Assembly (NCBI GenBank): GCA_027382625.1
Contig: JAJKFJ010022713.1
Location: forward strand, 62,001 to 126,000
Length of the DNA stretch: 64,000 nt
From: Tetmemena sp. SeJ-2015
Taxonomy: Eukaryota > Ciliophora > Spirotrichea > Sporadotrichida > Oxytrichidae
Direction: 5' to 3'
The notes beneath the pieces are model-generated. The model was given only the letters and a program-made list of their open reading frames with translations, did no database searches and had not been told where the DNA came from. Shown here in pieces: positions 4,301 through 23,737 of the stretch; within the stretch, counting starts at the first letter, position 1; each line of letters starts with the position of its first letter. Position numbers and translations under genes: made by a program.

Positions 4301-7300
4301 CAGTAACGAGTCTTCCAATTTGTTGTAGGGAGCAAATTTTCTACAACTCAGAAGCTTGGAGAATCCTCAACTTATGATGACTAGCACAAAGTATCAACAA
4401 GAATAATACCCTAATCACGAATCCACTAGCAACAGTGATTATAATTAGCTGCCTTCTTAATAAGAAGCAAATAAGAACGGATTTAGCTTGCCCTCCATAA
4501 TCAAGACATCTATAAATAACAACGAATATAGTGAGAATGAGTTTTATAAAATAAATTTCAACTATTTACTTTTGAAATATTTATTCTTTCATTAAAAAAT
4601 GATCAAGCTAAATATATATTCTCTAGTCATCATTTTAGTAATATTCTGAACTGCCCACTCATAGAAAAATTTCAGTATTCTCAGACTAATAAAACCCTTC
4701 ATTTAAATAGCAATAGCAACAGAGTTCTCACAAAAACAAACAAGCGAGGAATCAGAATTTGTAAGAGTTGAACTACAACCATCTCTCCTTCAATCAAATG
4801 CAAAAACTTACTCTTGACTAATTGCATGAGGGTTCAGTCTCGTATACAGCAGCTGGAGGAGGTCCTGCCTTCTTTGTTTTCCCAGAGACTTCACTTTCGA
4901 GCAAGGCCAACAAGCAAACTATAGACAATCCAAATTTCTAGAAGAAAAGAAAATCACTAAACCAAGAAAAGCGAATAACCGAGGTGGGAGGAAACAAAAA
5001 GAATGGCTCTAATAACAAACCTGAAACAGTCGAGCAGCTGATCTACTTCTCTAATTTTATGTTTGATATAAATTCATAGAAGGTATTCAGATAAACAGTC
5101 AGTATCCATCCCTCGTTAGAAATATCGAGCAAAATAGATCTTCATAGAGCCAGCTTAAACCCTTGATACAAGCTCACTAAGAGCTCTAAAGTCTCAGCCC
5201 AAATAAGAAAGTAAAAATCAACCACACTTAAATAATAAGTAAGTGTACTCTGTTTTTAAATTTAAATGGATGAAGTCAAAAAGCAAATAGCCATGAATGA
5301 AGAGCAAAAGAAATTTGCAGATGCTAAGCTTCTCAATCCATGCACATTATTATTGCATATTAATCCGATGCTAAAGTTAGTAAACCAGGAGCAGATTTCA
5401 AATGACTCAGAAGATACTACAACTCAAATCAGCTGACTAAAGAAGAACATATTCAAAATCTAATGAAGATTACCAACATCCAAAAGGATAGATCTTTAAT
5501 TACAATTCTAATTTAAGCATGTGCAGCACATCAAACAGATAGATGAAGGAGTTATAGATCCAAGTAACTAGTTCTCACAATAGAGGCAGAAGGATTTGCA
5601 ACTCAACGAGGATAAGAAAAATGTCATTAGATACAATAACAACATGAAAAGCATAGATCCTACTAGGAATTCTCAAGCCAGTCTATTTTTATTATTCAGT
5701 TTGATATCTGGATTCTTGAAGAAGAGAACTAATTTTTAGTCTCCAAAATATGATGATAAGCAACTTGGCTAAATTTCAATACTCGACTCCATAATTATTT
5801 TTAGCATATATGGATAATAAATTTAATTTTTTATAATGGTGCAGTCATTAGCTATTACAAATTAGTAGTCTTAGCTTCTAGCATATAAGAACTCAGTAGT
5901 GCAAAAGTTTTGTTCTTGCAATTAGGCTAATCTAAATAACGAATCTCTTATTGTCATCCAGGACTAAGATGGCACAACTTTGAATGAAGATCTGCCAACA
6001 GGCTCTACAAACGATATACAACTCAATCTCTAAGCTAAACCTACTCATCCCAAGACAAAGCTGAGTCACTGTATCCTTCAAATATATGCTAATTCTAATT
6101 CTAACTTTAATATAATTTAGCAATAAAGTTTGTATGGGCTAAATAAAATCAATCAGGTCCACTCTTGGGCTTTACTCCTTGGACTTGACCAATAAAAAGC
6201 ACAGACTACAGCAACTTCTAAACAAGAAGCCTTCTGCCTTTTCGATTTCTATGATAAGAGAGTGGAAGGATTAAATCAGATAGCTCTTTGCTAAGACTAA
6301 GAAACTACCTGCTTCGACTCCTCAGAAGTTTGGTTAGACCATGAGAATCAGTTTCTGTAGAAGGGAAAATATGGACAACAAGCCCTTGATTGTATTGATT
6401 TTTCAAGACTTCATGGGCCTATATGAGAGCTAGTATGAACTTGTTCCGGTCTAAGGAGGTCTAAATGGAGCCATGACAATCGATCGGAAGAGCATAGTGC
6501 AGAAGATATTTATCAAGAAGGGAACTTATATTTTAATAACGGTGCAAATGTTGAGACAACTCTTAGAGAACTTCCAAGTCGCTCTCTTTGTGGACGTATA
6601 TGGAAAAGACAAATTCACTGCCATCAAGGATGTCTTGCTAGTAAAAGAGGAGCTGGCTTTCGATGCCATTTATACTTTCAATACTGACAAAGCCTGCTAA
6701 AGCACCGTAGTCAACTTTCATAATGAAATTCTAGTATTTTTTGACTTGAATCAGGTAGCTTAGGATTTTCAAGTTGTAGATTAGCAGCTGAATCTGAACT
6801 ATCTATACGAAGCTGAAAAGATCTGTGTGGTCTAAGGGATCAAATTTGATCACTAACCTCAAGATCAAGTTAGTGATAAGGACCCCAAAGATGAGCAAAG
6901 GCATTTTATCAAGTAAATGAGGCTCTCCTAGAATCAACCATATGTCAGTTCAGTCCACATTCAAAATATCATCATAGGCTAGAGTCCTTACAATTTGGAA
7001 ACTTTGATTACACTCTTGTAAGAAGAGTCAGAAAAAGTTCTATTTCAATTTTTAGAGTCGTCTATAATAAGCTACAAGAACATCAAGCTTCTCAAAGAAA
7101 ACTTCTCACTGAGATAGAACACTCTCAATCTCAAAGCCTACTACAAGCAATAAAACTAAATCATTGAGGTTATGGAATACCAGAATAAAGTCAAAGTGGA
7201 AAGTGCTTCTCCAGATCTTAAGATCGCTGGCCTTCTCGCTAGTCTGAAGACTTAAAATAACGCTACTGCTTTTGAAAGTATTTTATTAAATATGCAAATG

Positions 7301-7551
7301 ACATGAGGAAATACTTTAATCAATATAGGTAGAAGTACAGGCCAGTAGAGGAAGTTTACAAGTGTTTGAGCTTGCCACCTTCTCAGATGAATTCTAGAGA
7401 AGTCTCCAGCTACCTTATAGGATATTAAAAGCTTAACAAGTTTTCTCAAGTCCAGACTAAAGCAATCAACACTCTCATCAATTCCACTGAATACCACAGC
7501 TTAAACTCATTCATTTAAAGAATCTTAATTGCTTTTATAAAAAAATTTTGA
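1331..7551 (+). CDS. Long Gln/Ser/Asn-rich protein(s), function unknown
   Basis: An ATG at 1331 opens a frame (MTDNFMHNLNTK) that continues with TAA/TAG read as Gln through Ser/Gln/Asn-rich sequence, interrupted by several IES-like or intron-like inserts. Only the GATAA insert at 1472 is firmly placed. Better conserved-looking stretches occur near 2480-2760, 3460-3620 (a Lys-rich helix, MAMKKKKTIERVKEH) and 6360-7500. The last is mixed alpha/beta then helical, ending KYANDMRKYFNQY through TGA 7549-7551. I do not recognise a family. The span could hold two genes, since I could not trace one unbroken frame across 1.9-2.4 kb and 4.5-6.1 kb. Confidence 0.45.
1472..1519. other. IES, 43 bp, pointer GATAA
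   Basis: GATAA at 1472-1476 and 1515-1519. Removal joins SPINNKD to NSVLGDKGSNF and extends the frame for more than 100 codons with no TGA. Confidence 0.7.
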
Positions 7552-7670
7552 GACTTTAAAAAAAAAGATTAAATGAGTTGAGAATTTAAAATTCTTAAAA
7601 TTTATCTAGCAGTTTTCTCCCCAAATTTACTTTTTTTATTTGAGTTCAAATTTTCTTATTTTTGAACTTG

Positions 7671-10600
7671 AGTGCAAGAGGACTTCGTAAAAATATAGAC
7701 CTGGATGAAGATGGTGATGATGAAAATGCTAATCAAAGCTAACATAAAAGTAAAAAGTCTAGTGTAAGAGTGTCTCAATAGGTTAAAAAGAACTGCTCAG
7801 ATGATGATGATTTGTCCTAAAAGGATGAGAGGCAATACCCTGAGGTCTTTGTTTAAATGGAAGGAGAGATTGAGCTCTCTGGATCTCGACCACATACTCA
7901 GAATTAATAGTTGGCCTCTAAAATATCCATTCAGAGTTAAAATTAAAAAGGCCTCTCTACTTCCTCTTTTCAACAAGCCAACTCAAATTAGAATGAAGAA
8001 GACTTTAATGAAAAAGCCAAGAGCCATAGTAATTCAAGAACAAGAAGAGAATAAGAAGAGGAGTAGTCTTCAAAAGAGGGGCAAATCAACCAAACTATTC
8101 TAATCGGCTATAGAAATAATAACATTATAGAGGACTATAACTTAGTAGATACTAAAATCATCAAAAATACTTGCATTAGTGTTCTAGATTGGCTTTGTAA
8201 AAAATGAACTTTAGAAATATAGTTATAAGCACTCTTATATTTTGACTTTATAATTGTCAGTATAGAATTAGCCTGAAAATTATTTACCCTTTATGAAGAA
8301 CCAGTCAATAGTTGAGTTCCAAACTGACACAGTGATTGAAGAATGCTCTCAAAAGTCTAAGAGTTTGTGTGAAAGGTTAAAGTAGATTGTGTTGGGGAAT
8401 CTGTTTATGTAGATCAATAAACCCCTATTAAAAGAATTGCTAGAATCCTCTAAGAATAATAAAGACAGCTATGAATAAGTCTTTTAGCAAATACCCTCAG
8501 AAATCAGACTCATTGTTAGTCAGAAGTTAGAGCTAAGAAGTAAGGATAAGCCACCTGTTCTATCAGGCTCGTCTTTTTAATTTATAATTAAACTTTTTAA
8601 TTCTTCAGCAAGTGACTTAAAAATGAGATAGCCTCTCGGAAACTTGCAAACAAGCTCTGCAAATATGAAACAGCAAAGCTAATAGAACTTCCTCATTCAA
8701 TCGAAGCAGCTCGCTTCTAAGCTCAGCTACGATTCACCACTCTAGAAAAATGAAACCACCCACAAACTTTAGTACACTTTTCAAAATGAAAAGGTATTTG
8801 TTTAACTTATAAATTGAGTTTACTATCCATCAATGAGTGACTTGACTGTGAGTGCAGCAAACGAGAATTTGCGACCACTAGTCCTCAAAGACTTGATGAG
8901 TCAGGGAGAAATAGAAAGCAGTCAAAATATTCCTCGCGCCTAGTAGATTCAAATGGTTAAGGCAGAGCAAATTTCTTCTTCTCAGACTAATCAAAAGGGA
9001 GAGGAGTATACAGTGGCTAATCAAAATTTCAACATCTTCCAGCCCAGACATCGCTCTCTATACTTGATTTTATTTATCTCAAAACCCAAGCATGAATTTA
9101 TCCGAATCTCCAAGTGAAAATCCTTACATCAATTCAGATGAAGAGTCTCCAGTCCCTTACGATAAATTATGAAATTTTAAATGTCTTAAATTGCTGATCA
9201 ATCATCAGAAGGGTTTGCAGACAGATGCCAGACGAATTGTTGACTCTTCACAGTCTATGGTAAGCTCTAGTGAGGTTTCAAACAATACCAAAAATTAGCA
9301 GGAGTTTTTCGAGGTACTTAACTAGAGAGTCAAATCTTCAGAACTTACTTACAAGTAGAATTAGAACAAGAATATTATGGAATATTAGGAGAAGAATCGA
9401 AATGAAAAAGTAAATGAAAGAACAGACCAACCGCCCTCAGTTAGCTAATTTGTTACCACTTAACTGAGAATGAACTATTCAGCTTATAAATATAAAGTTT
9501 TTACAAGTGAGAGTTTATATTAGCTTCTTAGGAGAGCTTAACTACGGAATATGAAAAGCTTTACTCTGATCTCCACTCTTCTTTAAAAAAAGTCTTATGA
9601 GAGAAACCTCCTCGAGCTAGAGAGTAGAATATAATCTCAACTTCTATAAACACTGAGAAACTGCAGGCCTACTACAAAGAGCACTCTAAGAGCTGTGATT
9701 AGGTGACTCGCCATGAGAAAAGAATAAATGAGCTTGCTGATAAGTTTGAAGAAGTGTAACTTAATGTGCAGTATCTAACAAGCAAGCAAGAAGAGCAGTT
9801 TAAGTAGTTGGGTGGCTATTAAGGATAGCTTGACTAACTCAAAACTAGACCTTCATCCATCGATAGTAGAAGATCCGTATCTGCTGTTCAAATAATATTT
9901 TATCTTTCTCTCTATTCAAATTAGTAAGGGAAATACAAGTAAGAAGGATGAGACTGATTTAAGAGCTAAAGTGTGAACAGCTTATCCAAGAGACTAGAAA
10001 TCAACTTCAAAGCTTGCAATAGCAGACTGATGTGTCTCAGCTAATGACTTCCATAAATTCCTTGAATGAGCAATTCAGCCACCTGCATGATGATGTAAAT
10101 AAGAAGCTGATGGATTTCTCTTAAACCTTCTCTAAAGACCACCATTAGAATCACCTACAAGGGAGGCTATCAATATCTCAATTTTAAAATTAAATATGTT
10201 GAAAGACAAAGTGCAGTAGCAAGATGAAAGAGTTGGATAATGTGAGAAAATAATAAAAGAGATTCATGTGGCTGTGCAAAGATACAGAAATAAAAACCTT
10301 GAGAAACAGATCAGCGATAAATTTGAAACTCTTGCAAAAGATAATGCAGCTTTTAGGAGAAGGTGCAACAAAAGATTTTGGACATTAACAATCTCATAGA
10401 GTAGAAATGTAAGAAAATAGTGGCTCAAGCTTATGATACGAGACTCTTGAAATTGGAGAATGAACTAAAGTCATCAGTTATAGATTAGATCCAGAATCAA
10501 ATGAGGGATCAATCTCCTGACACTGGTATGAGAAAGAATATATTTATTTATTTAAGAGCAGTAATTCAAGAGAGAATTAGACATCTTATGGCCAAAAGAA

Positions 10601-11546
10601 CGAAAACAAAGCTCTTTATACTAAAATAGATGACCTCTACAAAATATTTGACAAATCTAAACTTCAGCAGCTCAATCTGAAGAATGAAGTGAAATCTATA
10701 AAGGACAAGCTCACTTCTCTTGAAGGAAAAGTGGAAGAAGAACTAGCCTAGTATAATAAGTAGCTGAATCCCTTTGAGACTGAATATAAAAGCCCAATCA
10801 AGAGTGTGAATGTTTTGGATGTTTCATCTCCAATCTCTCATCTTACTTTAAGTCCAGCAAGAAAGCCTTAAAATCCAACCTCTGTTGAAAATAGACATAA
10901 GCCAACTCGCCCATAGATAGATGAGGAATCTAAATAGCGCATGTCAAAAATCCTCAAGCCTTCGATTGATGTTCAAAGCTAAGATTAGTCTACGCTAAAC
11001 TACAATCCAGTATAATCAGGAATAAGCCCTGTGGGAAATTTCAAGAGCTTCATTAGAAATCAACTCTATCAATCTTATGATCCTTAAAACCCTTAGGCCT
11101 AACTGAGTACTCATCCTAGGTAGTAGGTCAACTCTTCAACTTCTGATTTTAATGCTTACCAGAACTAATCCCATTTCAACACTTAAGATAGGCCTATGCA
11201 GCCTGGTCTTTATGAGAGGGCATTTACCTTTTCACAGTTGAATGGAATTTAAAACCATCATGCTTCAGTCCAAGCGTCTCAAAATCTCTCACCTTAGAAA
11301 TATTAAGCTACTCAAAATGAAAATAGATAACCCTCTATAAATGGAATAAACTTCGCAGAATAGTTGACATCTAGATACAGCAGATAATAGGATCAGATAT
11401 TCCATAAATCATATGATAGGAACGAGTCCTCTCTAGAAAGATAAGTTCACAGCAAATAAAGTACTGCTTAGAGAGTCTCAGAGCCGTCAGATGAACTTAG
11501 ATAATCGTTAATGCAGAGAGGGCTTTTGAATATCCTTAATAAATGA
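7671..11546 (+). CDS. Coiled-coil protein with Ser/Gln-rich tail
   Basis: An acidic start (NIDLDEDGDDENANQ) is followed by Ser/Gln-rich linkers. Long heptad-like helical stretches follow near 9.4-9.85 kb (RINELADKFEEVQLNVQYL), 9.95-10.15 kb and 10.2-10.75 kb. The C-terminal 260 residues are Pro/Ser/Gln-rich and end LLNILNK at TGA 11544-11546. Many TAA/TAG codons read as Gln. Frame changes near 9.55, 9.87, 10.2 and 10.53 kb mark further IESs or introns that I could not place exactly. A structural, cytoskeletal role is possible but inferred. The start is not resolved, and it may continue from the gene upstream. Confidence 0.55.
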
Positions 11547-11651
11547 AGTAACCTATTATTCTTTATTCAAAGTAAATATTCTTGATATACAAAATTGTAA
11601 GAATTTTCTTTAAATTCAAAATTTAACGATATAAATTCAAACTTGAATATA

Positions 11652-12715
11652 ATGGAAGATAACCTTGAGAAGATAACAGCTTTCTTCGTAAAATAATTTC
11701 CTCTTAATAATTCTAGGATTAATGCGAGCAAAGGCATATTGAAATTCCTTTGGATGTGAAAGATGCTTTGAAAAATGAATAGAGCTGTCTTTCTTTTAAG
11801 CACTCTTAGATGATTTAGCTCAAAGAAAATATGGTAAGAGTGTTTAAGTGTAACCATTTTAGGTTGCAGACTTTAGCATTTGTATCCTTCATTTTATTTA
11901 AAGTTAATTTTTTTTTAATTTTTATCGCAGTTCTCCTCCAATAGAACTTACATTTTCTAAAATCTTTGGAGCTCCACGGAATAAGACTGACTAACCAAGC
12001 TATAAATACTCTTTCAGTAGCTCTTAAAGTAACTACTCTATTTGCATCCATAATCTAATATAGAAAAATTAAGTTCTTGAAAACTTAACTCTAAGTGACG
12101 TTAGCTTGAATGATGAAGGAGTCCTCTCTTTATCGATAGGATTGTAGTCCAATAGCTCCATCAAGTCTCTTTGCCTCCCACACAATCAAATTTCAAGCTA
12201 TGGGCTTGAAAATCTCTAGACTGCTTGGAAGTTAACTCAAACATCTAATCTATCGACTTATTGCATAGTGAAAAATTATTTATAGTTAGGTATGTTTAAC
12301 TTTTAAATTATAACTGGCAACTAGATTTGTGAGATCCCTGTCTCTCTAGGAGAACTTTCTTCGTAGCCCAAACTGCTAACTCAATTCACTATAACTCAGT
12401 TATAATACTCTCAATCAACTTAACTTAGCGAAGCTCTTTGCATGCTTGAGATCAAACCTCTCGCTCACACAAGTCCTCGTATCAGTAAGCTAAAGCATTA
12501 ATGTTACAATATGTTTTAGGGATACAATTTTAGAGACAAAGCACATGAAAAATTTTGTGAGTTCATTGCTAAAACAAAGACTCTCCAAAAGTTAGCTTTT
12601 GATATCGATGATCAGCCAAACTAACCTGAAGAAGCTAATGATAACCTGGAAAATGCTTTTATGAAAATTAATTAACGAATCAAGGAATTTAGAGAATGTA
12701 CTTATTCATAAATCT
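11652..12715 (+). CDS. Leucine-rich repeat protein
   Basis: Starts MEDNLEKITAFF at ATG 11652. After the two IESs are removed the protein shows ribonuclease-inhibitor-type LRRs: LQTLAVLLQQNLHFLKSLEL, then LENLTLSDVSLNDEGVLSL, then SIKSLCLPHNQISSYGLENL and TGNQICEIPVSLGEL. Such repeats normally mediate protein binding; the partner is unknown. A frame step near 11748 fits one missing A in an A run. Another IES or intron lies at about 12255-12320, with ambiguous ends. The 3' end is convergent with, and close to or overlapping, the BSD gene. I could not fix its TGA. Confidence 0.7.
11876..11929. other. IES, 51 bp, pointer GCA
   Basis: GCA at 11876-11878 and 11927-11929. Removal gives the LRR string LQTLAVLLQQNLHFLKSLEL. 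The insert also begins near GT and ends near AG, but GT-AG splicing would shift the frame while pointer deletion does not. Confidence 0.75.
12027..12074. other. IES, 44 bp, pointer AAGT
   Basis: AAGT at 12027-12030 and 12071-12074. Removal joins SVALK to VLENLTLSDVSLNDEG in frame and restores one LRR. Confidence 0.82.
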
Positions 12716-13880
12716 ATATTGAATTTAGACTCATCATCTTCATCATCATCGTCAATCAGGGCAAGAGCTTCATCTATTTCCTTTTCGAGTTAATCTATAT
12801 CATTCTATTAGTTTATCTCTGATCTTTGGTCATTAGCAGTTGTGTCATTTTTACTTTTACTTTCTTGTTATGGTATTTCTTCATCCTATTGCAATGAGTT
12901 AAATTATAACAAGATTTTAACTTTTATATCAAAGATTATAAAAAATTATCTATATATAAATATGTTTATTTTATGCTAAAAGATAATTAAGAGTTCGTAT
13001 CTTGTTGAATATTAGAGGTATTTTCCTCCTAAGGAATGATATTTTCAGTTGATGCTTATTATTCTTGTTAGGGAGGCTCTTATTATACTTATTCCTTCTA
13101 TTGGGTAAGTGTATCCTATTTAATTTGCGCTTATCCTAATTTATTGACCAATCCTAGCTCTTAATATGACATTAAACATCATATTTTTAATTAAAAAACT
13201 TAAGCTCTGCCTTAATGATTTCAATCTGATAGAAGTATATTTAAATAATTTACTCTTATTTTAAAGTAGTTCCTCCAGAAGTCGTCTTCCTCAATTAGAT
13301 CAGGCACGATTTCCTGCCTCATTTTAGCAAGACTTTTATCTATCTTTAACATAATTTAAGCCACGTACAGGTATCTATCGTATTCAAAATCATACTCAAA
13401 CTCAAGATTTTAGACTGTCAATCTAGAAACATCAACATAAAAATACTCTTCTTAATCACAAAATTTTATATATCAAGGGACAGCTAAAAGATTTCAGCCT
13501 TTACTATTTGCTCAATTCCAATACGGTGGTTTTAGAAATCTAAGCCCCACCAAGGCAAGATTAGCAATCTTTTTTGTAAAATATTCTCAGCTGCATCTTC
13601 CTTCGCCTGAACTTGCTCAGTTAAAAGCTTAAAAGCATTTTCAATCAGCTCAGAATCATTCACATCTTCTCTTATTTGCTCACTTCGTTAAATCTTTTCC
13701 AAGAACTCATCTACAAACATTAAAGTGTTTATATGACTTGCCTATTAAATTTTCAGCTTCAATTTGCTCGTGCTCTTTCTGAAGTTTAGAAGCTTCAACT
13801 TAGATGAACTCCTTTACTTCGTTTATTTTTTGATCTACTGTTGATTTTAAAGTGGCTGCAAACTTTGTGAGGTAGTTCAT
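12706..13880 (-). CDS. BSD-domain protein
   Basis: N-terminus MNYLTKFAATLKSTVDQ, then a helical acidic region, then a BSD domain. Its signature, LAKMRQEIVPDLIEEDDFWR followed by NYFYQIEIIKAEL, appears only after a 31-bp IES is removed. BSD domains occur in TFIIH p62 and in DOS2/SYAP1-type proteins. The domain near the C-terminus plus a Glu/Asp-rich tail resembles the latter, but that is inference. The tail ends LIDDDDEDDESKFNIDL at TGA (complement 12706-12708). An additional insert near 13.7 kb breaks the N-terminal helix, possibly an intron. Confidence 0.8.
13233..13268. other. IES, 31 bp, pointer AAGTA
   Basis: AAGTA at 13233-13237 and 13264-13268 (TACTT on the coding strand). Removal restores the FWRNYFYQIEII core of the BSD domain. 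Confidence 0.9.
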
Positions 13881-13941
13881 TTTAAATTGTAATTATAAAT
13901 TATCTAGAATAATTAAGTGCATCAAACAGAAGAAGAAGATT

Positions 13942-14774
13942 ATGGGATTCTATAGTATAAACTACTTCAAAATATTCCTTCTCTGTTCTCTCTTAAGCTA
14001 AACCAAAGCTTAGTACAAATATAGAAACTTAACTATCCCTGGAACTGAAAAATACATAATATAGCATTTATAAATGCGGAATAAATGCAATGTGCTACAA
14101 GGACGCAGCCCTTAGTTTATTTATGTCAGCTGTAGTTTTGCCTACTCTCATCATAGCAGTTTTCATAATTGTGGCTATATGTGCTAGAAAGTAAATCATG
14201 ATTGAGAATTATGAAGCATCTTAAAAACTGAAGCAAGTCAGAGCAGTGTTTCTTAAAAAATATTAAGTTTTATTTTTTGTTTGACAGCAAATATGAACCA
14301 TAGATGAGCGAGGATTAGATAAAATATTTTAATTAGTTTATTAATGAGGAAGCTATAAATTCAGCAGCCATCGCATATCTAAATGAAGTTAGAGTGCAGA
14401 CCTTCCCAGAAACCACAACTATATTTTTTTTATTACTAGTTTATCTATATCCTCATTGAAATTGGGGAGCTTTAAGAAAAAGAGAGCTGAAATTTAAGAT
14501 AAAGCAGACAACGATATAGACTTGATGAATCCTCATATGCCTGAACATGCACTCACTAAGTAGGGAATTCAAATAGATGAACTGATGTTCGATGCACATA
14601 AGTATGAATTTAAAGAGAAGTTTAAAAATATACTCTATTATAATTAATATTTTAAAGTTAAGAGCTAAAATTCTTTCTGAGAGGCAAGCCACGAAAGAAG
14701 CAATCAAAGAAATGCTAGAGAAAAAACAGTAAAGAAAGAAACTCAAAAAGAAAATGCAACAGGAAGAATCGTGA
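13942..14774 (+). CDS. Single-pass membrane protein with cytoplasmic coiled coil
   Basis: MGFYSINYFKIFLLCSLL looks like a signal peptide, with possible cleavage near SQTKAQ. A short lumenal part follows, then one strong membrane segment (LPTLIIAVFIIVAICA), then a charged cytoplasmic domain with helices (IMIENYEASQKLKQVRAVFL; ATKEAIKEMLEKKQQRKKLK). Three IESs with pointers TGC, AAATAT and AAGTT restore the frame; a further insert lies near 14425-14462. TGA is at 14772-14774. The family is not recognised. The topology suggests a type I membrane protein. Confidence 0.65.
14086..14095. other. Possible mini-IES, 7 bp, pointer TGC
   Basis: TGC at 14086-14088 and 14093-14095. Deleting 7 bp joins RNKC to YKDAALSLFM and connects the signal-peptide frame to the membrane-segment frame. 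Confidence 0.55.
14258..14294. other. IES, 31 bp, pointer AAATAT
   Basis: AAATAT at 14258-14263 and 14289-14294. Removal joins VFLKKY to EPQMSEDQIKYF in frame. Confidence 0.75.
14618..14659. other. IES, 37 bp, pointer AAGTT
   Basis: AAGTT at 14618-14622 and 14655-14659. Removal joins HKYEFKEK to LRAKILSERQATKEA in frame. Confidence 0.78.
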
Positions 14775-15428
14775 AAGCTGGAAATTAATCAAACTAGAAC
14801 TTCAATGAATTAAACAAATAGAAATGACATATTAATAGTAATAACATTTTAATGCAGATATTTTATTCATTATTTAAAACAAATAAAATGTACTAAAAAA
14901 AGTTGTAATGATTTTTAAATAAAGAACTTGCAACCAGATCAATATTAGAAGAATAATTTGATGGAGTAGTAATTCAGTAAATCTAACTAGCTTGCCGAAT
15001 ACAGAGGATCAATCGGATATCATTATCCTTATAGCAAATTTGAGTCATTCAAGTCCTAGTACCTTTTCATCGAACGAATCTAGCAAAGGATCAAAGCGCT
15101 CCTTCTAATGCTTTTGATAGTGGCCAGAACTCAAACTCACTCACTTACTATTTAATATATTTAATTTATCTTAGAGAAAAGGACAAATAGATTATCATTA
15201 TGTAAATATAGCTATTTTAAATAGATCATGGCGATGCCTTTTCAAAATATAGGCAATTTTTAAAAGGGTAATTTAATTCAAGTCAAATCCTAATACCTTG
15301 AGAAATAGACGAAGATGATTTATGATATCTCTATCACCCTCCCTTTCTATAATCCTTTCTATTATTATCTATCTTGATCATAAAATTAAAAATAATAATT
15401 TATCAGTGAAAACAATTTGATCTAAACT
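14775..15428. other. AT-rich spacer with one possible small coding piece
   Basis: Mostly AT-rich. About 14925-15150 (+) can be read, with TAA/TAG as Gln, as NLQPDQYQKNNLMEQQ then AEYRGSIGYHYPYSKFES. That is more protein-like than its surroundings, but it has no clear start, stop or homolog. It may be a small gene or a piece of a neighbour. Confidence 0.3.
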
Positions 15429-16156
15429 ATGATGATGAAACAAATGAACTCTGAAGAAAAGAGACTTCTAATTTTAAAATTCTTCTCTTTACTTGCAGTC
15501 ACTTCGCTACTTATAGCTTGTAAGAATATATCCCATGTTTATCATTTTTACAGCTATACTTCAACTAATTGAGGGCACGAAGTTTACGATATAAGAATTA
15601 GTGATGGTCTATAATATGTAAGAATTTTAGAAATAAGATGATGAATGTATGTTAGAGTATTTTCTGTCAGTATGGTGGTGACTGAGGTGAATCAGTACTA
15701 TTTTGAGAATTTCGTAGTAGAATTCCTGCCTTTTCTTAAGCTGAGATACGGGAAGCCTGCCTTTTATTTCATGTAAGCCTTGCAAATTTGGAATTGGCTT
15801 ATTCTTTTTGTCTTATCTAAAATGCTTGATATAGAGTTGGAAGCTTTTGTTTTGAGCCTGAGACTGACGTAATGGGTCACTGTATGTTCTATATCGGCAT
15901 AATTTTGATGGCTTTGAGCATGCTCTGGAGTCTGTACTACTATCAGAGGTCGCTCGTGAGCCCCACAGACTACAGAGGATTTAGCTACCCTCAAACAGAC
16001 TTTGCTAAGATAGTAAGCAGTAAGGCAATCAGTCAGTAGATGAGGAGGGATGAGTTTGAGCTGGAGAGAGAGGCTTACAGGGGTATAGACATACAATAAA
16101 TAGCAGATCAAAATAATAAAACTAAGAATGCAAACTACATTTAAAATAAGGACTGA
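15429..16156 (+). CDS. Four-helix membrane protein, COPI-associated/TVP15-like
   Basis: Starts MMMKQMNSEEKRLL and has hydrophobic segments FFSLLAVTSLLIA, then (after a GT-AG intron at about 15520-15553) ILQLIEGTKFTIQELVMVYN. After an IES comes FSVSMVVTEV, then EFLPFLKLRYGKPAFYF and MFYIGIILMALSMLW. The order of four membrane segments, and a loop of the form F.FL...GKP.FYF, resemble small Golgi tetraspan proteins of the COPI-associated/TVP15 group. This is family resemblance, not proof. The cytoplasmic tail is charged (MRRDEFELEREAYRGIDI) and ends at TGA 16154-16156. A further insert at about 15775-15855 is needed to link FYFM to SFCFEPETD; its pointer is not resolved. Confidence 0.6.
15616..15649. 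other. IES, 29 bp, pointer ATGTA
   Basis: ATGTA at 15616-15620 and 15645-15649. Removal gives VMVYNMYVRVFSVSMVV, a continuous membrane segment. Confidence 0.78.
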
Positions 16157-16385
16157 ACAAGAAAACTAAAATACAATCAACCCATGAGTAGTGCAGTTGA
16201 TAATCTGAATCTTATTTATTCATAAATTTACTCCAATTTTAATTTCTAAAATCTAAAAACATACTCTACTTTCATAATCGAAGATCTTTGTAAATATATA
16301 ATTTCTGTCTGTGAAATATTTCAAATTTTAACTGATAGAGAAATAAATGCATCGTCATAGTGCACTTTGATTTTATTAAAAGTAA

Positions 16386-18411
16386 ATGGCAGAATTTTAG
16401 CTCGTTATAAACCCTCTTACTGAAAGCAACTTGAATGCTCTATAGTAAAGTCTACTTGATGACGTAAGATAAAAATAATTAAGAATCTCCTTTAGAAAGA
16501 TAGGAACTATGCACAATAAAAGCAGTCGAGGAAGAAATACTTGAATGAAGAGGATGTATTTGATAGAGTTGGCGCATTAGGTAAGCTTTTCTTAGATTAT
16601 GAACAACTCTTTAGGGTTGTTTTAATTCGCAGCTTTACCAGTGACCTTCATAGCTTTCATATTTGAGGGTTATATACTCTACCCTCTCTGCCTTCTAGCA
16701 TTGATGCCTGACTACGTCTGCTTCGACTATAATGATGCTACAGAGACAGGCAGCCCCTCTCAAGGTCCTTCTTTCTTCCATTGCTCAAATGAAGATACTT
16801 GCAGACCATAGTACAATTTTGAAGTTTAATAGCTCACAAATGGAAACGAAGATTTCCTAAGGTGAAGCGGTTTTTTCATAAATTGGGAAAACTAGACAAG
16901 TATACACAACTGGGTTGAGCCTCTTGGCTTAAGGTGCTCTCCAGAGTGGCAAATTGGTTTCCTCGGGGCCATTTATTTTATAGGAAATGTGGTTGGGAGT
17001 AGTCACCTCTCAAAGTATGGTGACACCCATGGAAGAATAAAGTTGTTAAGATTAGCGATGAGTGTATTTATAATTTAAGTGCCTCTGTTGTGATGCTAGC
17101 CACCATGATGTACTTGGTGCATTATAAGCCAGTAGTTTTCTTTCTACTATTTGCACTTGGCTACCTCTCGTGCATAAGAATGAACTTCAGCTTCATCTAT
17201 GGCTCTGAGATAATAAAGACCTCGCACTCTACAGTAATCTGTAGCTTTTACAATACATTAGATGGTCTGACAATGATTCAGGCAGCCATTTACTTCAAAT
17301 ACATATCAAAAGACTGGCTCACGCTCTATTGGTACTTCCTCATGATTTCTATTTAAATCCAATTTAATGTCAATAATTGAAAGATAGAGTTAAAATTAAA
17401 TTGTCGGCACCCTTGCAAGTTTTGTGATGCCTGAGTCTCCTAGGTATCTAATAAGCATTGGCGATTTCAAGAGAGCAAGAGAGTCCTTCAATTTCATAGC
17501 TAGAATGAACGGGAAAAAGCCACTAGACCCCAACACAGAATATAATTAGCTACTTTTAAAAAGAACGATTCGTTGAAGAGCTAGAGTACCAAAGCCATAA
17601 GAATTAGCATTCAGGATTCTTCGGAAGAGAGGAAGTTAAACTAGACACAGAGGAAAAATATCGCAAAGGTTAAGATGACGATAATGAAGAGCATGATGGG
17701 CTAACAACGATTTCCTCCAAGTCTGACTTTTGGAGTCTCTTTACAATAAAGCTCTATGTAATCAACTTGATCATGATGAATATTGCTTGGTGTGCCTCGT
17801 GCTTTACTTACTACATGGTAGGCTTTTATATCAAGTATATACCAGGTGATGTCTTTCAAAACGTCATAATATCTTCATCTCAGAATCAATGGCATGCTCT
17901 AATTTATAACCAAATGTATTTTAAGATGCTTGATATCAGGATTCATCGCTCTGGTAATCGGCACTAAGAATACTCTGATTATGTGCTTTACTATTGGAGG
18001 AGTGTTTGGCTTAGCTCTTGCCTTCATAGATCCCAAGTATGATTATTTGATTCTGCTTTGCTTGCTTTTGTCAAAGTTTGGAGTCTCCAGCTCTCTGAGT
18101 CTTTGCTTCCTCGTGACCTCAGAGTATTTCCCTATTATCTCATTTCAAATTATAAGCTTAAAATTTGTATCTACAGTGCCTCTGTGTTCGGAGCCTGTAG
18201 CTTATTCGCAAGAGTGGTGTCTATCTTTGCTCCTCTGATAGCAGAGATCAACCCTCCCCTCCCTATGATAATCTACGGAGTGTTTTGCTTCATGAGTGTT
18301 CTAGGAACTACCTTCCTGGCTAAGGACAAGAAAGCACAAGCAGCTATTGATGAGGCCCTACTACAAGCTAGTCCGTTAAACAAGACAGCCACTAATCGCA
18401 ACTAAAACTGA
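16386..18411 (+). CDS. Major facilitator transporter A (SV2/organic-solute type)
   Basis: First of three tandem paralogs. Features shared with B and D: an N-terminal DRVG.LG.F element, an LMPDY motif after the first membrane helix, the MFS loop motif GDTHGRIKLLRLAM between helices 2 and 3, the central FVMPESPRYLIS motif typical of sugar/organic-ion and SV2-like carriers, and YYMVGFYIKYIPGD after a long cytoplasmic loop. The substrate is unknown. A 32-nt GT-AG intron follows LLDD and a second follows GAL. IESs at 17061, 17351, 17894 and 18136 are supported by homology; an in-frame TGA lies at 16863. Frame steps near 17555 and 17870 are unresolved. It ends at TGA 18409-18411. Confidence 0.85.
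16859..16867. other. Possible mini-IES, 6 bp, pointer AAG, carrying an in-frame TGA
   Basis: AAG at 16859-16861 and 16865-16867 flank TGA 16863-16865. Deleting 6 bp gives EDFLSGFFINWEN and removes the only stop in this stretch. Paralog B keeps the frame open at the matching place. Confidence 0.45.
17061..17081. other. IES, 17 bp, pointer AGTG
   Basis: AGTG at 17061-17064 and 17078-17081. Removal gives LRLAMSASVVMLATMM, a continuous transmembrane helix. Confidence 0.85.
17351..17402. other. IES, 49 bp, pointer ATT
   Basis: ATT at 17351-17353 and 17400-17402. Removal gives YFLMISIVGTLASFVMPES in frame. Confidence 0.85.
17894..17930. other. IES, 32 bp, pointer ATGCT
   Basis: ATGCT at 17894-17898 and 17926-17930. 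Removal gives ESMACLISGFIALVIGTK, matching LFACLISG in paralog B. Confidence 0.85.
18136..18171. other. IES, 32 bp, pointer TATC
   Basis: TATC at 18136-18139 and 18168-18171. Removal gives SEYFPIIYSASVFGAC, aligned with EYFPTAYSSTVFGAC in paralog B. Confidence 0.88.
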
Positions 18412-18534
18412 TTTGAGGAGAGAGATATAATCGCTTTCTTTTTTGTGAATTAATCTGAAATATTAAGGATTTAAATTTCGTAAATTAACAGCTCTTAAAT
18501 TAAATATCAACTTTATATAAATAGCCGGTAAAAT

Positions 18535-20656
18535 ATGAACCGCAAAAATTAATCTTCTCACAACTTGCTTGACAAAGATTTCAGATTCACTCTTATCGAG
18601 TCTCAAGATGTTTAGTCACTTAAAGATCATCTTTTGGAAAAAGATCAATAACTTATTGAAGGAAGAGACCCTGATAATGAAGAAATATTTTAGAATTAGA
18701 GAGATGCTCTTGCTGCAGATGAGGATGAAATGGTAAATCGAAAAGAGGTCAAGATCTATGATTATGAGCAACTCCTAGATAGAGTTGGTGGATTTGGTAA
18801 GCTATAAGTTTTAAGTATCAGGTTTAATGAGTTGTTGTAGGAAAATTCTAGTTCAAAGCAATATTCATGACTGTAGTGTCTTTTATAACTGAGGGCTGTC
18901 TAGTCTACTCTTTCTCTTTCCTAACTCTGATGCCAGATTACATGTGTAATGATGGTGAAGGTGAAGGAGTCTATCATTGCAACAGGATGTAGACTTGTGA
19001 TTATGTAAATCAAGAGATGCTCATAGATCAAGAAATCTAAAGTTAATAAGGATGGTCAATAAACTGGCAGAATTAAACAAGCTTATTCAACTTAGTTGAA
19101 GAGTTAAATCTTAGATGCGCTGAAAACTGGGAGATAGGATTCTTGGGATCCCTAATAATTTTATACTCGTTGATTTTTATATCAAAATTAGGATCATGCT
19201 ATTTTATGGGAGCAGTTTTTGGAAATCTGTTCTTATCGCGTTTAGGAGATACGATAGGAAGAATTCAAATGATGAGAATCGGAGTGACACTATTCACTCC
19301 TGCTCTATACTTTCTTCCTCTTTGTAAGCACTAGCATTTATGTGAACTACATACTTATGTTGCTGTTTGGGAGTCTCACCAGCTTCCGAGTTAGCATAAG
19401 TTATCTGTATGGACAGGAGATTGTGAAATCTACTCAATCGAACTTAATTGGAAGCCTCTACAATATTATTGACTCCCTCTCAATCAATACATTTTAAACT
19501 TATTGTAATTAAACTAAAATTAAGTTATAAAATGATCATAGCCTCTCTTTACTACAAATTCATCTCTAACAATTACATCGGTATCCACATGTTTTTCTTC
19601 TTCCTAATCCTTGCTTCAACTATGATTAGTTACTCTCTCCCTGAATCACCCAAGTTTCTGATCTCAACCAAGAAATACAAGTAGGCAAGATCAGCGTTAA
19701 ATAAAATAGCACTTACTAACGGGCGTAAGATGCTTGATGGCTAATGCGAATTATTAAAAGACGAAGTTCTAATGAATAAGAAGAGAAGACTCAGATAAAT
19801 CTAAGTTTAAAACCTAAGGAAGATGTCTTAGCAGCTTTCTATTGATCATGTAAATAGAACTCTAGATTCTCTTCAATCTCAATATCCAGGCTAACACTCG
19901 ATCTTACAATCTGATACAGAATAGAGTGTACTTACTCAACTTGGTTTTAATGAGCATCACTTGGGCTTCTTCAACCTTCACTTACTACATGGTGGGTTTT
20001 TACATAAAGTATATCCCTGGAGATATTTTCAACATGGTTATTGTGTCATGCCTAGCTGAATTATTTGCGTGCCTGATTAGTGGCATACTTTCAAGCAGAT
20101 TAGGAACAAAGAAATGCCTCTTCAGCTCTTTCTTATTGGGAGGACTCTTTTTGGGATATCGATCATCTTTATTTCTCCTCAAAATGGAGGGTTCTTATCT
20201 CTTTATGCCTTCTGCTCACTAAGTTTGGAGTTTCAAGTGCCTTCAATCTAATCATAAAATGTAAATAATGTAATCTATGTTTCTTAGTTACTGCAGAATA
20301 CTTCCCAACTGCTTATTCTTCTACAGTTTTCGGAGCATGCAATTATAAATATAGATTCCGCTCATATGAATTGACATTAAGCTAATTATGAATGTGTTTG
20401 CCCGAATAATGTCAATATTTGCTCCTTTGATTGCAGAGGTGCCAGCCCCAGTTCCAATGATTGTATATGCATGCTTTTGCTTCATGAGTATGCTTGGAAC
20501 CACACTCTTAGTGAAACATGAAGATGCAGATAATAAGATTGACGATATAAATATATCAGATACCATCTTTTAAATTTTATTTTATTTTATATTTTACTTA
20601 GCAAGAGCTCTTATCCAAATAAGAGGGAAAGAGACTTCGACTATGAATTTGACTGA
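18535..20656 (+). CDS. Major facilitator transporter B
   Basis: Second tandem paralog, starting MNRKNQSSHNLLDKDF. A GT-AG intron follows VGGFG (about 18796-18841). Motifs: TLMPDY, RLGDTIGRIQMMRIG, SLPESPKFLIS and YYMVGFYIKYIPGD. IESs at 19146, 19483, 20245 and 20341 and possible short ones at 19310 and 19905 restore continuity. Two further frame steps near 20150 and 20210 fit one- or two-base differences in T runs. The last recognised helix is PVPMIVYACFCFMSMLGTTL. The exact stop is uncertain: the frame after SDTIF has no near TGA, and a small insert would lead to the acidic end RDFDYEFD and TGA 20654-20656. Confidence 0.82.
19146..19195. other. IES, 45 bp, pointer GGATC
   Basis: GGATC at 19146-19150 and 19191-19195. 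Removal gives IGFLGSCYFMGAVFGN in frame. The insert itself has no stop, so it would add 15 residues to a membrane helix. Confidence 0.85.
19310..19323. other. Possible mini-IES, 10 bp, pointer CTTT
   Basis: CTTT at 19310-19313 and 19320-19323. Removing 10 bp gives TPALYFVSTSIYVNY, close in length to the same helix in A. A one-base T-run error is the alternative. Confidence 0.45.
19483..19538. other. IES, 52 bp, pointer ATCA
   Basis: ATCA at 19483-19486 and 19535-19538. Removal gives DSLSIIASLYYKFISN, aligned with the IYFKYISK region of the paralogs. Confidence 0.75.
19905..19917. other. Possible mini-IES, 10 bp, pointer TAC
   Basis: TAC at 19905-19907 and 19915-19917. Deletion joins the loop frame (HSILQ) to NRVYLLNLVLMSITW. 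Confidence 0.45.
20245..20277. other. IES, 27 bp, pointer AATCTA
   Basis: AATCTA at 20245-20250 and 20272-20277. Removal gives SSAFNLCFLVTAEYFP, matching SLSLCFLVTSEYFP in A. Confidence 0.9.
20341..20393. other. IES, 50 bp, pointer AAT
   Basis: AAT at 20341-20343 and 20391-20393. Removal gives VFGACNVFARIMSIFAPL, matching GACSLFARVVSIFAPL in A. Confidence 0.88.
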
Positions 20657-20775
20657 TGAATCTATAGCCTAAAATCTATATTTCATTTTGCATCTATTCA
20701 CTTCACTATTCTTCTTCTTAACTTTTAAGATTTAAATTTAATGTTAATAGTAATTTTATTATAAAATATTTTAAT

Positions 20776-21312
20776 TTTATTTCAAGTATATTTCAAAGGA
20801 GTGGCTGTATCTGTACTACTTTTTCCTGACTATTGCATTTATGCCCTTCGTGATAAGTTTGTTCATGCCCGAGTCTCCCAAATTCCTAATCCAAAAAAGA
20901 AGGATCCTCTTAGCGAGATAGTCCTTCATATATTTATTTTTACTTCAACTAGATAGCAAGGATAAATGGAGTGGAGCAATTCAATTATATACACATATTG
21001 ATTAATTGAGAGAAAACGAGAGACTGCTTCAAGAAAGGTACAGTTACAGCTTTAGCTAATCAAACCTGGAATCTACAGCACACAAATTATTTACTGTAAA
21101 GATGTGGGCAAGCAAAATCAATCAGTCAACTAAATTAACTTGGTCGCATCTCCAAACTATTCATTATAGAATTAGGATGTAGTTTGTTGAGCGTACTCAG
21201 ACAGAAAAAGTACACTATCAACTATGTTACTCTACTGCTTGCATGGTCTGCTAGCTCTTACGCCTACTACATGATTGGTTTCTATCTTAAATACATTCCA
21301 GGAGACATTTAC
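20776..21312 (+). CDS. Transporter D, middle segment (scrambled, second in final order)
   Basis: This piece has no start and no first half. It opens inside a 14-bp pointer (20776-20789) and reads FKYISKEWLYLYYFFL, then LFMPESPKFLIQ, then the cytoplasmic loop and AYYMIGFYLKYIPGDIY. It stops at an 11-bp pointer (21302-21312). Both pointers recur exactly in the transporter downstream (22979-22992 and 23073-23083), which lacks precisely this part. One IES (20924) lies inside. A one-base step near 21190 fits a short T run (needed: DVVLLSVLRQ). The piece is the central third of gene D placed ahead of its first third. Confidence 0.9.
20924..20947. other. IES, 19 bp, pointer CTTCA
   Basis: CTTCA at 20924-20928 and 20943-20947. 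Removal gives RQSFNQIARINGVEQ, aligned with RESFNFIARMNGKKP in A. Confidence 0.88.
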
Positions 21313-22063
21313 TTTTCAAATTTAATATCATTAAACATAAAAATATCATTTATAGTGTTAATTTGAAAATCAATAAAATATAATTATATTAGGTAACAAT
21401 CACTTAAATTATCTATAGATTAAAATAATTTACAAGGAACTATAAAAATGATCGCAATTAAAAATATCGATTCTCTCTTAGCTTAATTGACTATTCAATC
21501 CAGATTTAAATAGGATTCCTCAAATAAATTATATTTTTAATAAATTCTCTGCTATTTTATATGAAATATATTTGAATGAATGAGTAAGATAGATAGGGTG
21601 TTAATTGAATAAGAGATTTCTGCTCAATACATATTAAAGAAGTGAAATTAAACAGCGAGGGCATTTAAATCAATGGAGCTAGAGGGCAATAATCTTAATG
21701 AAGGGCTCATCAAGAATCAGCCACCCAATCCAGAACTTATTGATGAAGGCTAAAATATTCAATTTTACTTTGGAGAAAATAAATATAGAGAATCCGTTTA
21801 CAAATAATTTCTTAAGTTTAATTTTTTTAAAAAAAAACTCTTAAATTAAACTCTTTAAAATAAAATTTAAGTGGGCTATAGAGGGACAAGAGCATATTCA
21901 AATGGAAGAGTAATTAAAAATAAATTTGGAAAACATTTCTGTGTATGTTCTCGCTCTACTTACTTTTAAATTTATTTTATCAAATGTTTTATAGCATTAG
22001 AGCACAATATTTTAATTATTATCATCTCCAAACTTTAAACCAGAAGCATAAGGAACGAATAGT
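21313..22063. other. AT-rich spacer between scrambled segments, with one short open frame
   Basis: Largely AT-rich. An ATG at 21673 opens MELEGNNLNEGLIKNQPPNP then ELIDEGQNIQFYFGENKY. The hydrophilic composition resembles the variable N-termini of transporters A, B and D. It could be an unused or alternative first segment, or unrelated. The rest shows nothing recognisable. Confidence 0.35.
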
Positions 22064-22992
22064 ATGGCTGATGAGACTTTTATCTCCAGAAATAACCTAT
22101 CAGTCCAGAACTTAAATAACACCAGTTTGTTGAGCCTTTATATATAGAAGAAGAGTAAGCTGAAAAATGATGCTAAATATTTTGTTTATAGACAAGGTAT
22201 ATGGGATTTGAGGAGGCTTTGGACCGAGTAAAATCATTAGGTAATCATATTTTAAACTGATTAGACATAGGTAAATTAAATAACTAATCTATCTTTTTAT
22301 TTTTATAATTTCACGTGCTGACTGCAATCATGTGTGTTCTTGCATATTCTATGGACGGCTACACTGTGTATGGATTATTTTCATACTCTACTTACTTTGA
22401 TGCCTGATTACTACTGCGTCGATGAGAATAGTTCTCACTAGTGTATCGCAGCCAAGACGTGTGAGAGCAAATATAATAATCAGCTCCAGCAATATATTTT
22501 AATTTAAAATCATTAGATAACTAGTGGGTTCACTAAAATTAAACCGGATATTACATAGATTGGCAATCTCCAACAAGCCTCTCAAATTGGGTCTAGACTT
22601 TAGATCTCAGATGCGCATCACCTACACAAATCGGATTCTTTGGTTCTGTAATTTTCATCGGTCTTGGACTTGGGACTTTAGCCTGGCTCGATTTGGTGAT
22701 GAATATGGCAGAATTAGGACACTTAGAGTTGGACTATTTAATAAAATGCTGTAAATTTAAATGGCTATTTCTGAGTTTGATAGTCTTTTTGCTGCTAGTA
22801 TTTTTATAAACTAGCATAGAACTAACCTATTTCTTCCTGTTTGCTTTGGGATTCCTCTCTACAATAAGATTAAATGTGAGTTTCATTTATGGCTCGGAGG
22901 TTTTCAAGGAAAAGCATGGGTCGATAATGGGTTCTTTAACTCTTGGTATGGACTCATTGACTATGGTGATAGCTAGCATTTATTTCAAGTAT
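22064..22992 (+). CDS. Transporter D, first segment (first in final order)
   Basis: Starts MADETFISRNNLSVQN. It carries the paralog elements ALDRVKSLGKF, LLTLMPDYYC, ALARFGDEYGRIRTLRVG and SIYGSE-like FIYGSEVF. It ends in SLTMVIASIYFKY at the 14-bp pointer 22979-22992, after which the downstream sequence loses homology. A 30-nt GT-AG intron spans 22241-22270. IESs at 22178, 22274, 22369, 22492 and 22734 restore the frame. Near 22673 one C appears to be missing (ALARFG). The last codons continue exactly in the segment at 20776. Confidence 0.88.
22178..22200. other. IES, 20 bp, pointer TAT
   Basis: TAT at 22178-22180 and 22198-22200. Removal gives NDAKYMGFEEALDRVKSLG. Confidence 0.7.
22274..22310. 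other. IES, 33 bp, pointer AATT
   Basis: AATT at 22274-22277 and 22307-22310, directly after the GT-AG intron. Removal gives SLGKFHVLTAIM, aligned with GFGKFQFKAIFM in B. Confidence 0.75.
22369..22378. other. Mini-IES, 7 bp, pointer TAT
   Basis: TAT at 22369-22371 and 22376-22378. Deleting 7 bp gives TVYFHTLLTLMPDY, equal in length to LVYSFSFLTLMPDY (B) and ILYPLCLLALMPDY (A). A one-base correction would leave two extra residues. Confidence 0.65.
22492..22551. other. IES, 56 bp, pointer ATAT
   Basis: ATAT at 22492-22495 and 22548-22551. Removal gives QQYYIDWQSPTSLSNW, aligned with the SINWQNQTSLFN region of B. Confidence 0.8.
22734..22770. other. IES, 31 bp, pointer CTATTT
   Basis: CTATTT at 22734-22739 and 22765-22770. 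Removal gives LRVGLFLSLIVFLLLVFL, a clean transmembrane helix. Confidence 0.9.
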
Positions 22993-23072
22993 GATATAAT
23001 AATCTACAGCTGTTGACACTTCTATTCAAGGAACCAAAGATGTGGGAATATTATAGTGAAGATATAATTATA

Positions 23073-23737
23073 GAGACATTTACGTCAATTTCATTGTCTC
23101 ATCTGTAACAGAAGCAATTATAATAAATAATTTACTTAAACTTTTGTATAATTGCTTGCTAGATTTCTGGCCCCTTAGCGAATAGATATGGAAGTTCAGA
23201 GACACTGACAGTTTCCTTCATAATTGCGGGAGTATTTGGAATTCTAATGAACCTTATTCATCAGTCCTAGCAAGTGCTTATCATAATTACTCTTCTCTTC
23301 CTGAAGCTTGGTGTTTAAAATAGTATTTTAACTAAATTTCGATCGCAATCAGCTTATGCTACCTGATAACAACTTCCTATTTCCCTGTACTTAACTCCTC
23401 AGCAGTGTTTTCCTATATATGCGCGAAGGCCAAGTTCTTCGCTATGTTAGCGCCTTTGATGGCTGAGGTTAAAGGCTGGGTGCCACTAACATCCATGAGT
23501 ATCGCTTGCTTCTTTAGTGCAGCCACAGCTTTCCTCCTCAAGAAGCATGTGGATGAAGATCCTATTCAGGGCTGTGAGCACGAGGGAGAGGCTTTTGGAT
23601 TCATAGAAAAGAACGATCGTGATTAAGGCCCAGAAGAAGAGACAATCACATTCTCATGCCAAAGGTAGAAAGCCAAACTGATTAGTTTGAATTATTCTAA
23701 TACAATTTTAATGCGTCAACATTTTTTTCAAGCTTGA
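23073..23737 (+). CDS. Transporter D, last segment (third in final order)
   Basis: Begins at the 11-bp pointer 23073-23083 and reads DIYVNFIVSSVTEAIIIACQ, then ISGPLANRYGSSETLTVS, SYFPVLNSSAVFSYI and LAPLMAEVKGWVPLTSM. It ends in a charged tail to TGA 23735-23737. No start is present; its N-terminal continuation is the segment ending at 21312. IESs lie at 23119 and 23314. Between 22993 and 23072 there is 80 bp of non-coding sequence separating the first and last segments. Confidence 0.9.
23119..23152. other. IES, 28 bp, pointer TATAAT
   Basis: TATAAT at 23119-23124 and 23147-23152. Removal gives TEAIIIACQISGPLANRYG, aligned with ACLISG in A and B. Confidence 0.88.
23314..23339. other. IES, 23 bp, pointer TTT
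   Basis: TTT at 23314-23316 and 23337-23339. Removal gives LFLKLGVSIAISLCYLITTS, aligned with SKFGVSSSLSLCFLVTS in A. Confidence 0.78.

What the first reader, a model, noticed from the sequence alone, without database searches (positions are those of the whole stretch)
20776..23737. Scrambled transporter gene with segment order 2-1-3
The segment 20776-21312 encodes exactly the part of a major facilitator protein missing from the gene 22064-23737. The junctions share exact repeats: 14 bp (20776-20789 = 22979-22992, within IYFKY) and 11 bp (21302-21312 = 23073-23083, within GDIY). Joining 22064-22992, 20776-21312 and 23073-23737 at these repeats gives a protein collinear with the neighbouring paralogs A and B. 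These pointers are longer than the 3-6 bp at simple IESs, as is known for scrambled genes.
Basis: seen in the sequence. Interest (0 to 1): 0.93.

Follow-up and report, generated by a model that had tools for sequence, protein, structure and literature searches.

The report
Scrambled transporter gene in ciliate germline
In this ciliate's germline DNA a membrane-transporter gene lies in three blocks in the order 2-1-3, with a 14-base and an 11-base exact repeat marking the two joins, so the cell likely cuts out and reorders the blocks when it builds its working nucleus, as is already known for many genes of related ciliates.

Summary
Block S2 (20776-21312) encodes the middle of an SLC22-like transporter, the part missing between S1 (ends 22992) and S3 (starts 23073). 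The 14-bp and 11-bp repeats are exact and maximal. Homologous proteins read S1-S2-S3, whereas the germline order is S2-S1-S3. The tested parts of all three blocks are closer to the same two homologs than to the neighbouring paralogs A and B, and the reading frame is the same on both sides of both joins. A second germline contig has S2 in the same place, 96.5% identical, with adjoining flanks at 84% and 88%; 7 of 8 changed codons in its two clear coding parts are silent. In the same genome a DNA polymerase alpha gene is split by an inversion with a 16-bp shared repeat, on two contigs. This is a canonical scrambled germline gene with ordinary pointer and IES sizes: a new member of a known kind. 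Not shown: the macronuclear DNA, a template RNA, the species, and any trace of a duplication-and-decay origin (tested, at chance). One in-frame TGA and some frame breaks in the gene stay unexplained.

The parts
20776..21312 (+). Block S2 (middle of the transporter; moved block), ends defined by the two scrambled pointers
   Evidence: tblastn with P0001, P0002, P0003; identity profile against contig C707
22064..22992 (+). Block S1 (first part of the transporter; start codon at 22064 is inferred)
   Evidence: tblastn; translation
23073..23737 (+). Block S3 (last part, to the TGA at 23735-23737)
   Evidence: tblastn; translation
20776..20789 (+). Scrambled pointer 1, copy at the start of S2 (14 bp)
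22979..22992 (+). Scrambled pointer 1, copy at the end of S1 (14 bp)
21302..21312 (+). Scrambled pointer 2, copy at the end of S2 (11 bp)
23073..23083 (+). Scrambled pointer 2, copy at the start of S3 (11 bp)
22993..23072 (+). 80-bp piece between S1 and S3, predicted to be discarded and replaced by S2; S1's frame meets TGA after 7 residues in it
21313..22063 (+). Interval between S2 and S1, predicted IES in its first part; holds a conserved stretch from about 21600 (see Noticed in passing)
20924..20942 (+). 19-bp simple IES inside S2, pointer CTTCA (second copy from 20943)
   Evidence: choice of pointer by comparison with P0001 and P0002
22187..22197 (+). Tentative 11-bp simple IES, pointer TATA (second copy from 22198)
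   Evidence: for the two copies; reading by eye
22238..22267 (+). 30-bp simple IES, pointer TAGGTAA (second copy from 22268)
22505..22533 (+). 29-bp simple IES, pointer TAAAAT (second copy from 22534)
22734..22764 (+). 31-bp simple IES, pointer CTATTT (second copy from 22765)
23119..23146 (+). 28-bp simple IES, pointer TATAAT (second copy from 23147)
23314..23336 (+). 23-bp simple IES, pointer TTT (second copy from 23337)
16387..18410 (+). Paralog A (unscrambled in the tblastn order)
   Evidence: closest to P0003
18537..20656 (+). Paralog B (unscrambled in the tblastn order; 3' end inferred)
   Evidence: translation

Best explanation
Gene C is a germline gene whose three blocks lie in the order 2-1-3 with exact 14-bp and 11-bp repeats at the joins, and the cell likely moves block S2 between S1 and S3, guided by these pointers, when a new macronucleus develops. 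The 80-bp piece now between S1 and S3 would be discarded, one copy of each pointer would be kept, and the tiny simple IESs inside the blocks would be removed as usual. The product would be one SLC22-like transporter reading S1-S2-S3. Shown here: block order, repeats, frame at the joins, similarity to homologs, conservation of S2 in a second contig. Inferred from related hypotrichs: removal and reordering during development, guidance by template RNA, and the cutting enzyme.
For: Exact maximal repeats, rare by chance. Protein order S1-S2-S3 against DNA order S2-S1-S3 with three query proteins. The tested parts of S1, S2 and S3 rank P0001 and P0002 above P0003, A and B. Same frame on both sides of both joins, while the unmoved S1 meets TGA 7 residues into the 80-bp piece. 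S2 in place on contig C707 at 96.5% identity against 84.3% and 87.9% for the adjoining stretches; 7 of 8 changed codons silent in the two clear parts, where about 21% would be expected. S2 DNA found in two places and gene C DNA in one place of the genome. A scrambled, inverted DNA polymerase alpha gene in the same genome. Pointer and IES sizes within published tables (PMC2394655 section 4).
Against: No macronuclear or RNA sequence of this species was available. C707 ends at window 21718, before gene C, so S1 and S3 rest on one contig. A TGA at 21007-21009 and frame breaks near 22390, near 22670 and in 21080-21180 remain. The P0002 match to S1 runs on as one weak alignment through the 80-bp piece to 23127. 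The 80-bp piece can be read as an in-frame GT-AG intron that would leave S2 out. No similarity between the 80-bp piece and S2, which the duplication-and-decay model of origin would predict for a young case.
Confidence: 0.93

Rival explanations
1. Gene C is a broken paralog that lost its middle by deletion, and S2 is a leftover fragment of another broken tandem copy.
For: The locus is a tandem array of paralogs, gene C has unexplained frame breaks and a TGA, and the neighbours share the motifs in which the pointers lie.
Against: S2 begins and ends exactly where S1 ends and S3 begins, with exact repeats at both ends; the tested parts of all three blocks rank the same homologs first; S2 changes between contigs are mostly silent; S1- and S3-type gene C sequence was found at this locus only (best candidates scored).
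Confidence: 0.04
2. The 80-bp piece is spliced from the RNA as an intron and gene C makes a shorter protein without S2; S2 belongs to something else.
For: An in-frame GT-AG reading exists at 22989-23073.
Against: Of 6 in-frame GT-AG pairs around the piece 3 give an open reading, so such a reading comes cheaply. The protein would lack P0001 residues of about 202-376, which P0001, P0002 and P0003 all have. S2 would have no gene, though it is conserved.
Confidence: 0.02
3. Assembly error: S2 was misplaced by the assembler.
For: One draft assembly and no reads to check.
Against: Contig C707 (95.1% over window 7292-21718) has S2 in the same place behind gene B with the same following sequence. A misjoin would not explain pointer repeats at both ends.
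Confidence: 0.01

Closest known systems
Scrambled germline genes of hypotrich ciliates (actin I and TEBP alpha in Stylonychia lemnae and Oxytricha trifallax)
   Same: Permuted blocks on germline DNA, pointers at the joins, tiny simple IESs inside the blocks. Published pointers are 3-19 bp and IESs 4-215 bp (PMC2394655 section 4 read); here pointers are 3-14 bp and the placed IESs 11-80 bp.
   Different: Another gene (transporter in a tandem array), a simple pattern with one moved block and no inversion, in a species I could not name; the macronuclear form was not seen.
Odd-even exchange of an MDS for an IES with identical pointers (PMC9797194 section 8 read)
   Same: S2 and the 80-bp IES are flanked by the same two pointers, and the gene has local paralogs, as described for scrambled genes there.
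   Different: The 80-bp IES does not resemble S2 (232 of 2000 shuffles as good; 120 and 99 of 1000) and is much shorter, so no trace of duplication and decay.
SLC22-type organic cation transporters (major facilitator superfamily)
   Same: Homolog P0001 matches Pfam MFS_1 and Sugar_tr and its solved relatives are SLC22 members; the source name of P0002 is 'organic cation'.
   Different: Substrate unknown; similarity to the solved proteins is distant.

Membership tests
Scrambled germline gene (spirotrich ciliates) | Block order on germline DNA differs from the order in the product | tested here: met
   against homologous proteins, not against this species' own macronuclear gene
Scrambled germline gene (spirotrich ciliates) | Same short repeat at the end of one block and the start of the next | tested here: met
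   14 bp and 11 bp, exact and maximal; chance estimate
Scrambled germline gene (spirotrich ciliates) | Keeping one pointer copy at each join keeps the frame | tested here: met
   (both joins; a TGA inside the S2 loop remains)
Scrambled germline gene (spirotrich ciliates) | Macronuclear chromosome carries the blocks in the joined order | not testable with these tools
   no macronuclear sequence of the species at hand; no joined copy among the matches
Scrambled germline gene (spirotrich ciliates) | Template RNA in the joined order during development | not testable with these tools
   known from Oxytricha (PMC5513065 abstract)
Scrambled germline gene (spirotrich ciliates) | Genome belongs to an organism that scrambles other genes too | tested here: met
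   DNA polymerase alpha parts on opposite strands about 4 kb apart on C4161 and C1943 with a shared 16-bp repeat; identity of two parts by solved structures
Origin by MDS duplication and decay (model of Gao et al. 2015 as told in PMC9797194) | The exchanged IES resembles the MDS that replaces it | tested here: not met
   similarity at chance level; this would be expected of an old case too
SLC22-like major facilitator transporter | Profile match to the superfamily and solved relatives in SLC22 | tested here: met
   for the homologs P0001 and P0002 (Pfam) and P0001 (PDB); an S2 peptide alone matches Sugar_tr

The most novel reading that the evidence does not exclude
One germline locus feeds two transporters: an unscrambled S1-S2-S3 gene and, when S2 is not inserted, a compact S1-S3 form in which the leftover 80-bp piece is spliced from the RNA as an in-frame GT-AG intron, so that DNA scrambling acts as a switch between isoforms.
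Probability: 0.03. Interest if true: 0.65.

Novelty: new member of a known kind. Interest (0 to 1): 0.3.

Why it matters
It is a clean extra case of a germline gene whose pieces must be reordered: one moved block, in a tandem array beside two unscrambled paralogs, with a second contig for comparison. That makes it a handy locus for dating a scrambling event. It does not change the accepted picture: in the two papers read here 4.2-29.2% of loci or somatic chromosomes of six spirotrichs are scrambled (PMC9797194 abstract; PMC10901763 section 19).

Tried and rejected
Duplication-and-decay trace: the 80-bp IES against S2 (232 of 2000 shuffles as good, and 159 of 1827 other stretches of the window; 120 and 99 of 1000); flanks of S2 against the start of S3 and the end of S1 (237, 120, 374 and 357 of 500); interval 21313-22063 against gene C (165 of 200). 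All at chance. The interval against A+B gave 0 of 100, but the alignment is an AT-rich run, so I do not count it. RNA splicing of the 80-bp piece: possible in frame, but 3 of 6 such readings are open. A third contig, C4138, matches window 10686-20404 at 95.9% in the part fetched, but ends there, before S2. Telomere repeats: none of five patterns in the window. Pointer ATA for the IES in S2 was dropped for CTTCA, which restores two residues present in the homologs. Species: not identified; the SSU rRNA search did not complete, and I saw no match for a 146.2-Mb assembly in the paper listings or in the size tables read.

Full report
What is there. The window is C3349:62001-126000 of an unnamed assembly of 146.2 Mb in 5213 contigs. 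The transporter genes read with TAA and TAG as glutamine. Three tandem genes lie on the plus strand: A (about 16387-18410), B (about 18537-20656) and C (22064-23737). Among 40,000 random pairs of 61-base stretches of the window 0.0125% share a 14-mer and 0.16% an 11-mer; inside the array 0.0175% and 0.43% (pairs closer than 200 bases were skipped but stay in the denominator).

Order. A search with a hand-joined gene C protein found 5 proteins at E <= 0.001 among 7996 scored candidates: P0001 (57%; labelled only with a source number, which I take from recall to be an Oxytricha trifallax record), P0002 (53%, named Stylonychia lemnae by its source), P0003 (38%) and two distant ones (25-26%). To avoid circularity I searched the raw window with P0001, P0002 and P0003. 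P0001 residues 1-201 lie on 22330-22992, 198-250 on 20778-20936 (68% identity), 342-390 on 21184-21330 (78%) and 377-543 on 23060-23641. P0002 gives 238-331 on 20778-21050, 342-391 on 21181-21330, 384-455 on 23130-23327 and 451-532 on 23336-23584; its S1 match (33-289 on 22309-23127) runs on through the 80-bp piece as one weak alignment, against the clean picture. P0003 gives the same order at lower identity. So the protein order is S1-S2-S3 and the DNA order S2-S1-S3. A and B are collinear with the proteins in the same search.

Which gene S2 belongs to. The two clear S2 parts are 69% and 84% identical to P0001, 61% and 75% to P0002, 50% and 55% to P0003, 52% and 50% to A, 39% and 41% to B. 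The tested parts of S1 and S3 put the same two homologs first (the A and B peptides there were typed by hand with IESs left out).

Frame. After joining the blocks at the repeats and removing the simple IESs, the frame is the same on both sides of both joins (IYFKY-ISKEW and PGDIY-VNF) and ends at the TGA 23735-23737. Unmoved, S1 meets TGA after 7 residues of the 80-bp piece. Simple IESs placed in gene C are 19-31 bp with pointers TAGGTAA, TAAAAT, CTATTT, TATAAT and TTT and CTTCA; an 11-bp one with TATA is tentative. Not solved: a TGA at 21007-21009 in the S2 loop, frame breaks near 22390 and near 22670, and the stretch 21080-21180, where C707 differs by two single-base indels.

Second contig. 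C707 (14,436 bases) matches window 7292-21718 at 95.1%. S2 is there in the same place: 96.5% over 536 aligned bases against 84.3% over 204 for 20560-20775 and 87.9% over 339 for 21313-21672. Both pointers are intact there and the identity falls right outside them. The flanks are not uniformly poor: 20601-20700 is at 95 matches per 100, probably the end of gene B, and 21601-21718 is identical. In the two clear coding parts of S2 8 codons differ, 7 silently, where about 21% would be silent at random; six stretches of A and B gave 31 silent and 7 changed, a like picture. The S2 loop was left out of that count. C707 ends at 21718, so it does not show gene C. DNA searches found S2 in these two places and gene C in one. 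A protein search gave 89 matches (79 of 125 candidates scored); the strongest S1- and S3-type ones (55% and 71%) are at this locus.

Is scrambling usual in this genome? A search with the family B polymerase profile gave 24 matches. On C4161 the parts for profile positions 3-85 and 98-171 lie on the minus strand and the part for 155-239 on the plus strand about 4 kb away; C1943 shows the mirror image (52-85, 98-171, then 160-239 on the other strand). A third contig, C5004, has the first two parts only. Two translated parts match solved DNA polymerase alpha subunits best, and the two sides share the 16-bp repeat CTAACAGTATGTATGG on both contigs. So an independent gene in this genome looks scrambled with an inversion.

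Comparison. Tables for actin I and TEBP alpha give pointers of 3-19 bp and IESs of 4-215 bp; of the three permuted joins of Stylonychia actin I two have pointers of 19 and 17 bp and one has 6 bp (PMC2394655, abstract and section 4 seen). [quoted passage not shown] Thousands of template RNAs are known from Oxytricha (PMC5513065, abstract seen). For PMC10901763 I saw the abstract and sections 15 and 19, for PMC1805493 passages. The locus fits this picture. The duplication-and-decay model predicts that the exchanged IES resembles the MDS; here similarity is at chance, so the move is old or arose in another way.

Verdict. The finding is right and well observed. It is an ordinary scrambled germline gene in an unidentified, hypotrich-like ciliate. 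That the blocks are reordered in the macronucleus remains inferred.

Noticed in passing
21600-21970: A stretch identical in C707 up to its end (21718) and open from an ATG at 21673 (MELEGNNLNEGLIKNQPPNPELIDEGQ...). It has no Pfam match and only C707 plus one weak match in the genome. It may be the 5' end of gene C's chromosome or an MDS of another gene.
   Followed up: partly
17061-17081 (paralog A): Read by eye: an apparent frameshift in paralog A vanishes if a 17-bp IES with pointer AGTG (17061-17064, 17078-17081) is removed; the result matches P0003. Some frame breaks in this genome may be very small IESs rather than sequencing errors.
   Followed up: no
20603-20656: Conserved piece behind an IES that reads KSSYPNKRERDFDYEFD and TGA, probably the last MDS of gene B, directly before S2.
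   Followed up: partly
L042 (C4161:8001-18000) and L043 (C1943:136001-145900): DNA polymerase alpha gene split over both strands with the shared 16-bp repeat CTAACAGTATGTATGG: a second scrambled gene, with an inversion.
   Followed up: yes
L036 (C4138) against window 10686-20404: Third contig over genes A and B, 95.9% identical to the window and 93.1% to C707: more than two divergent versions of this region are in the assembly.
   Followed up: partly
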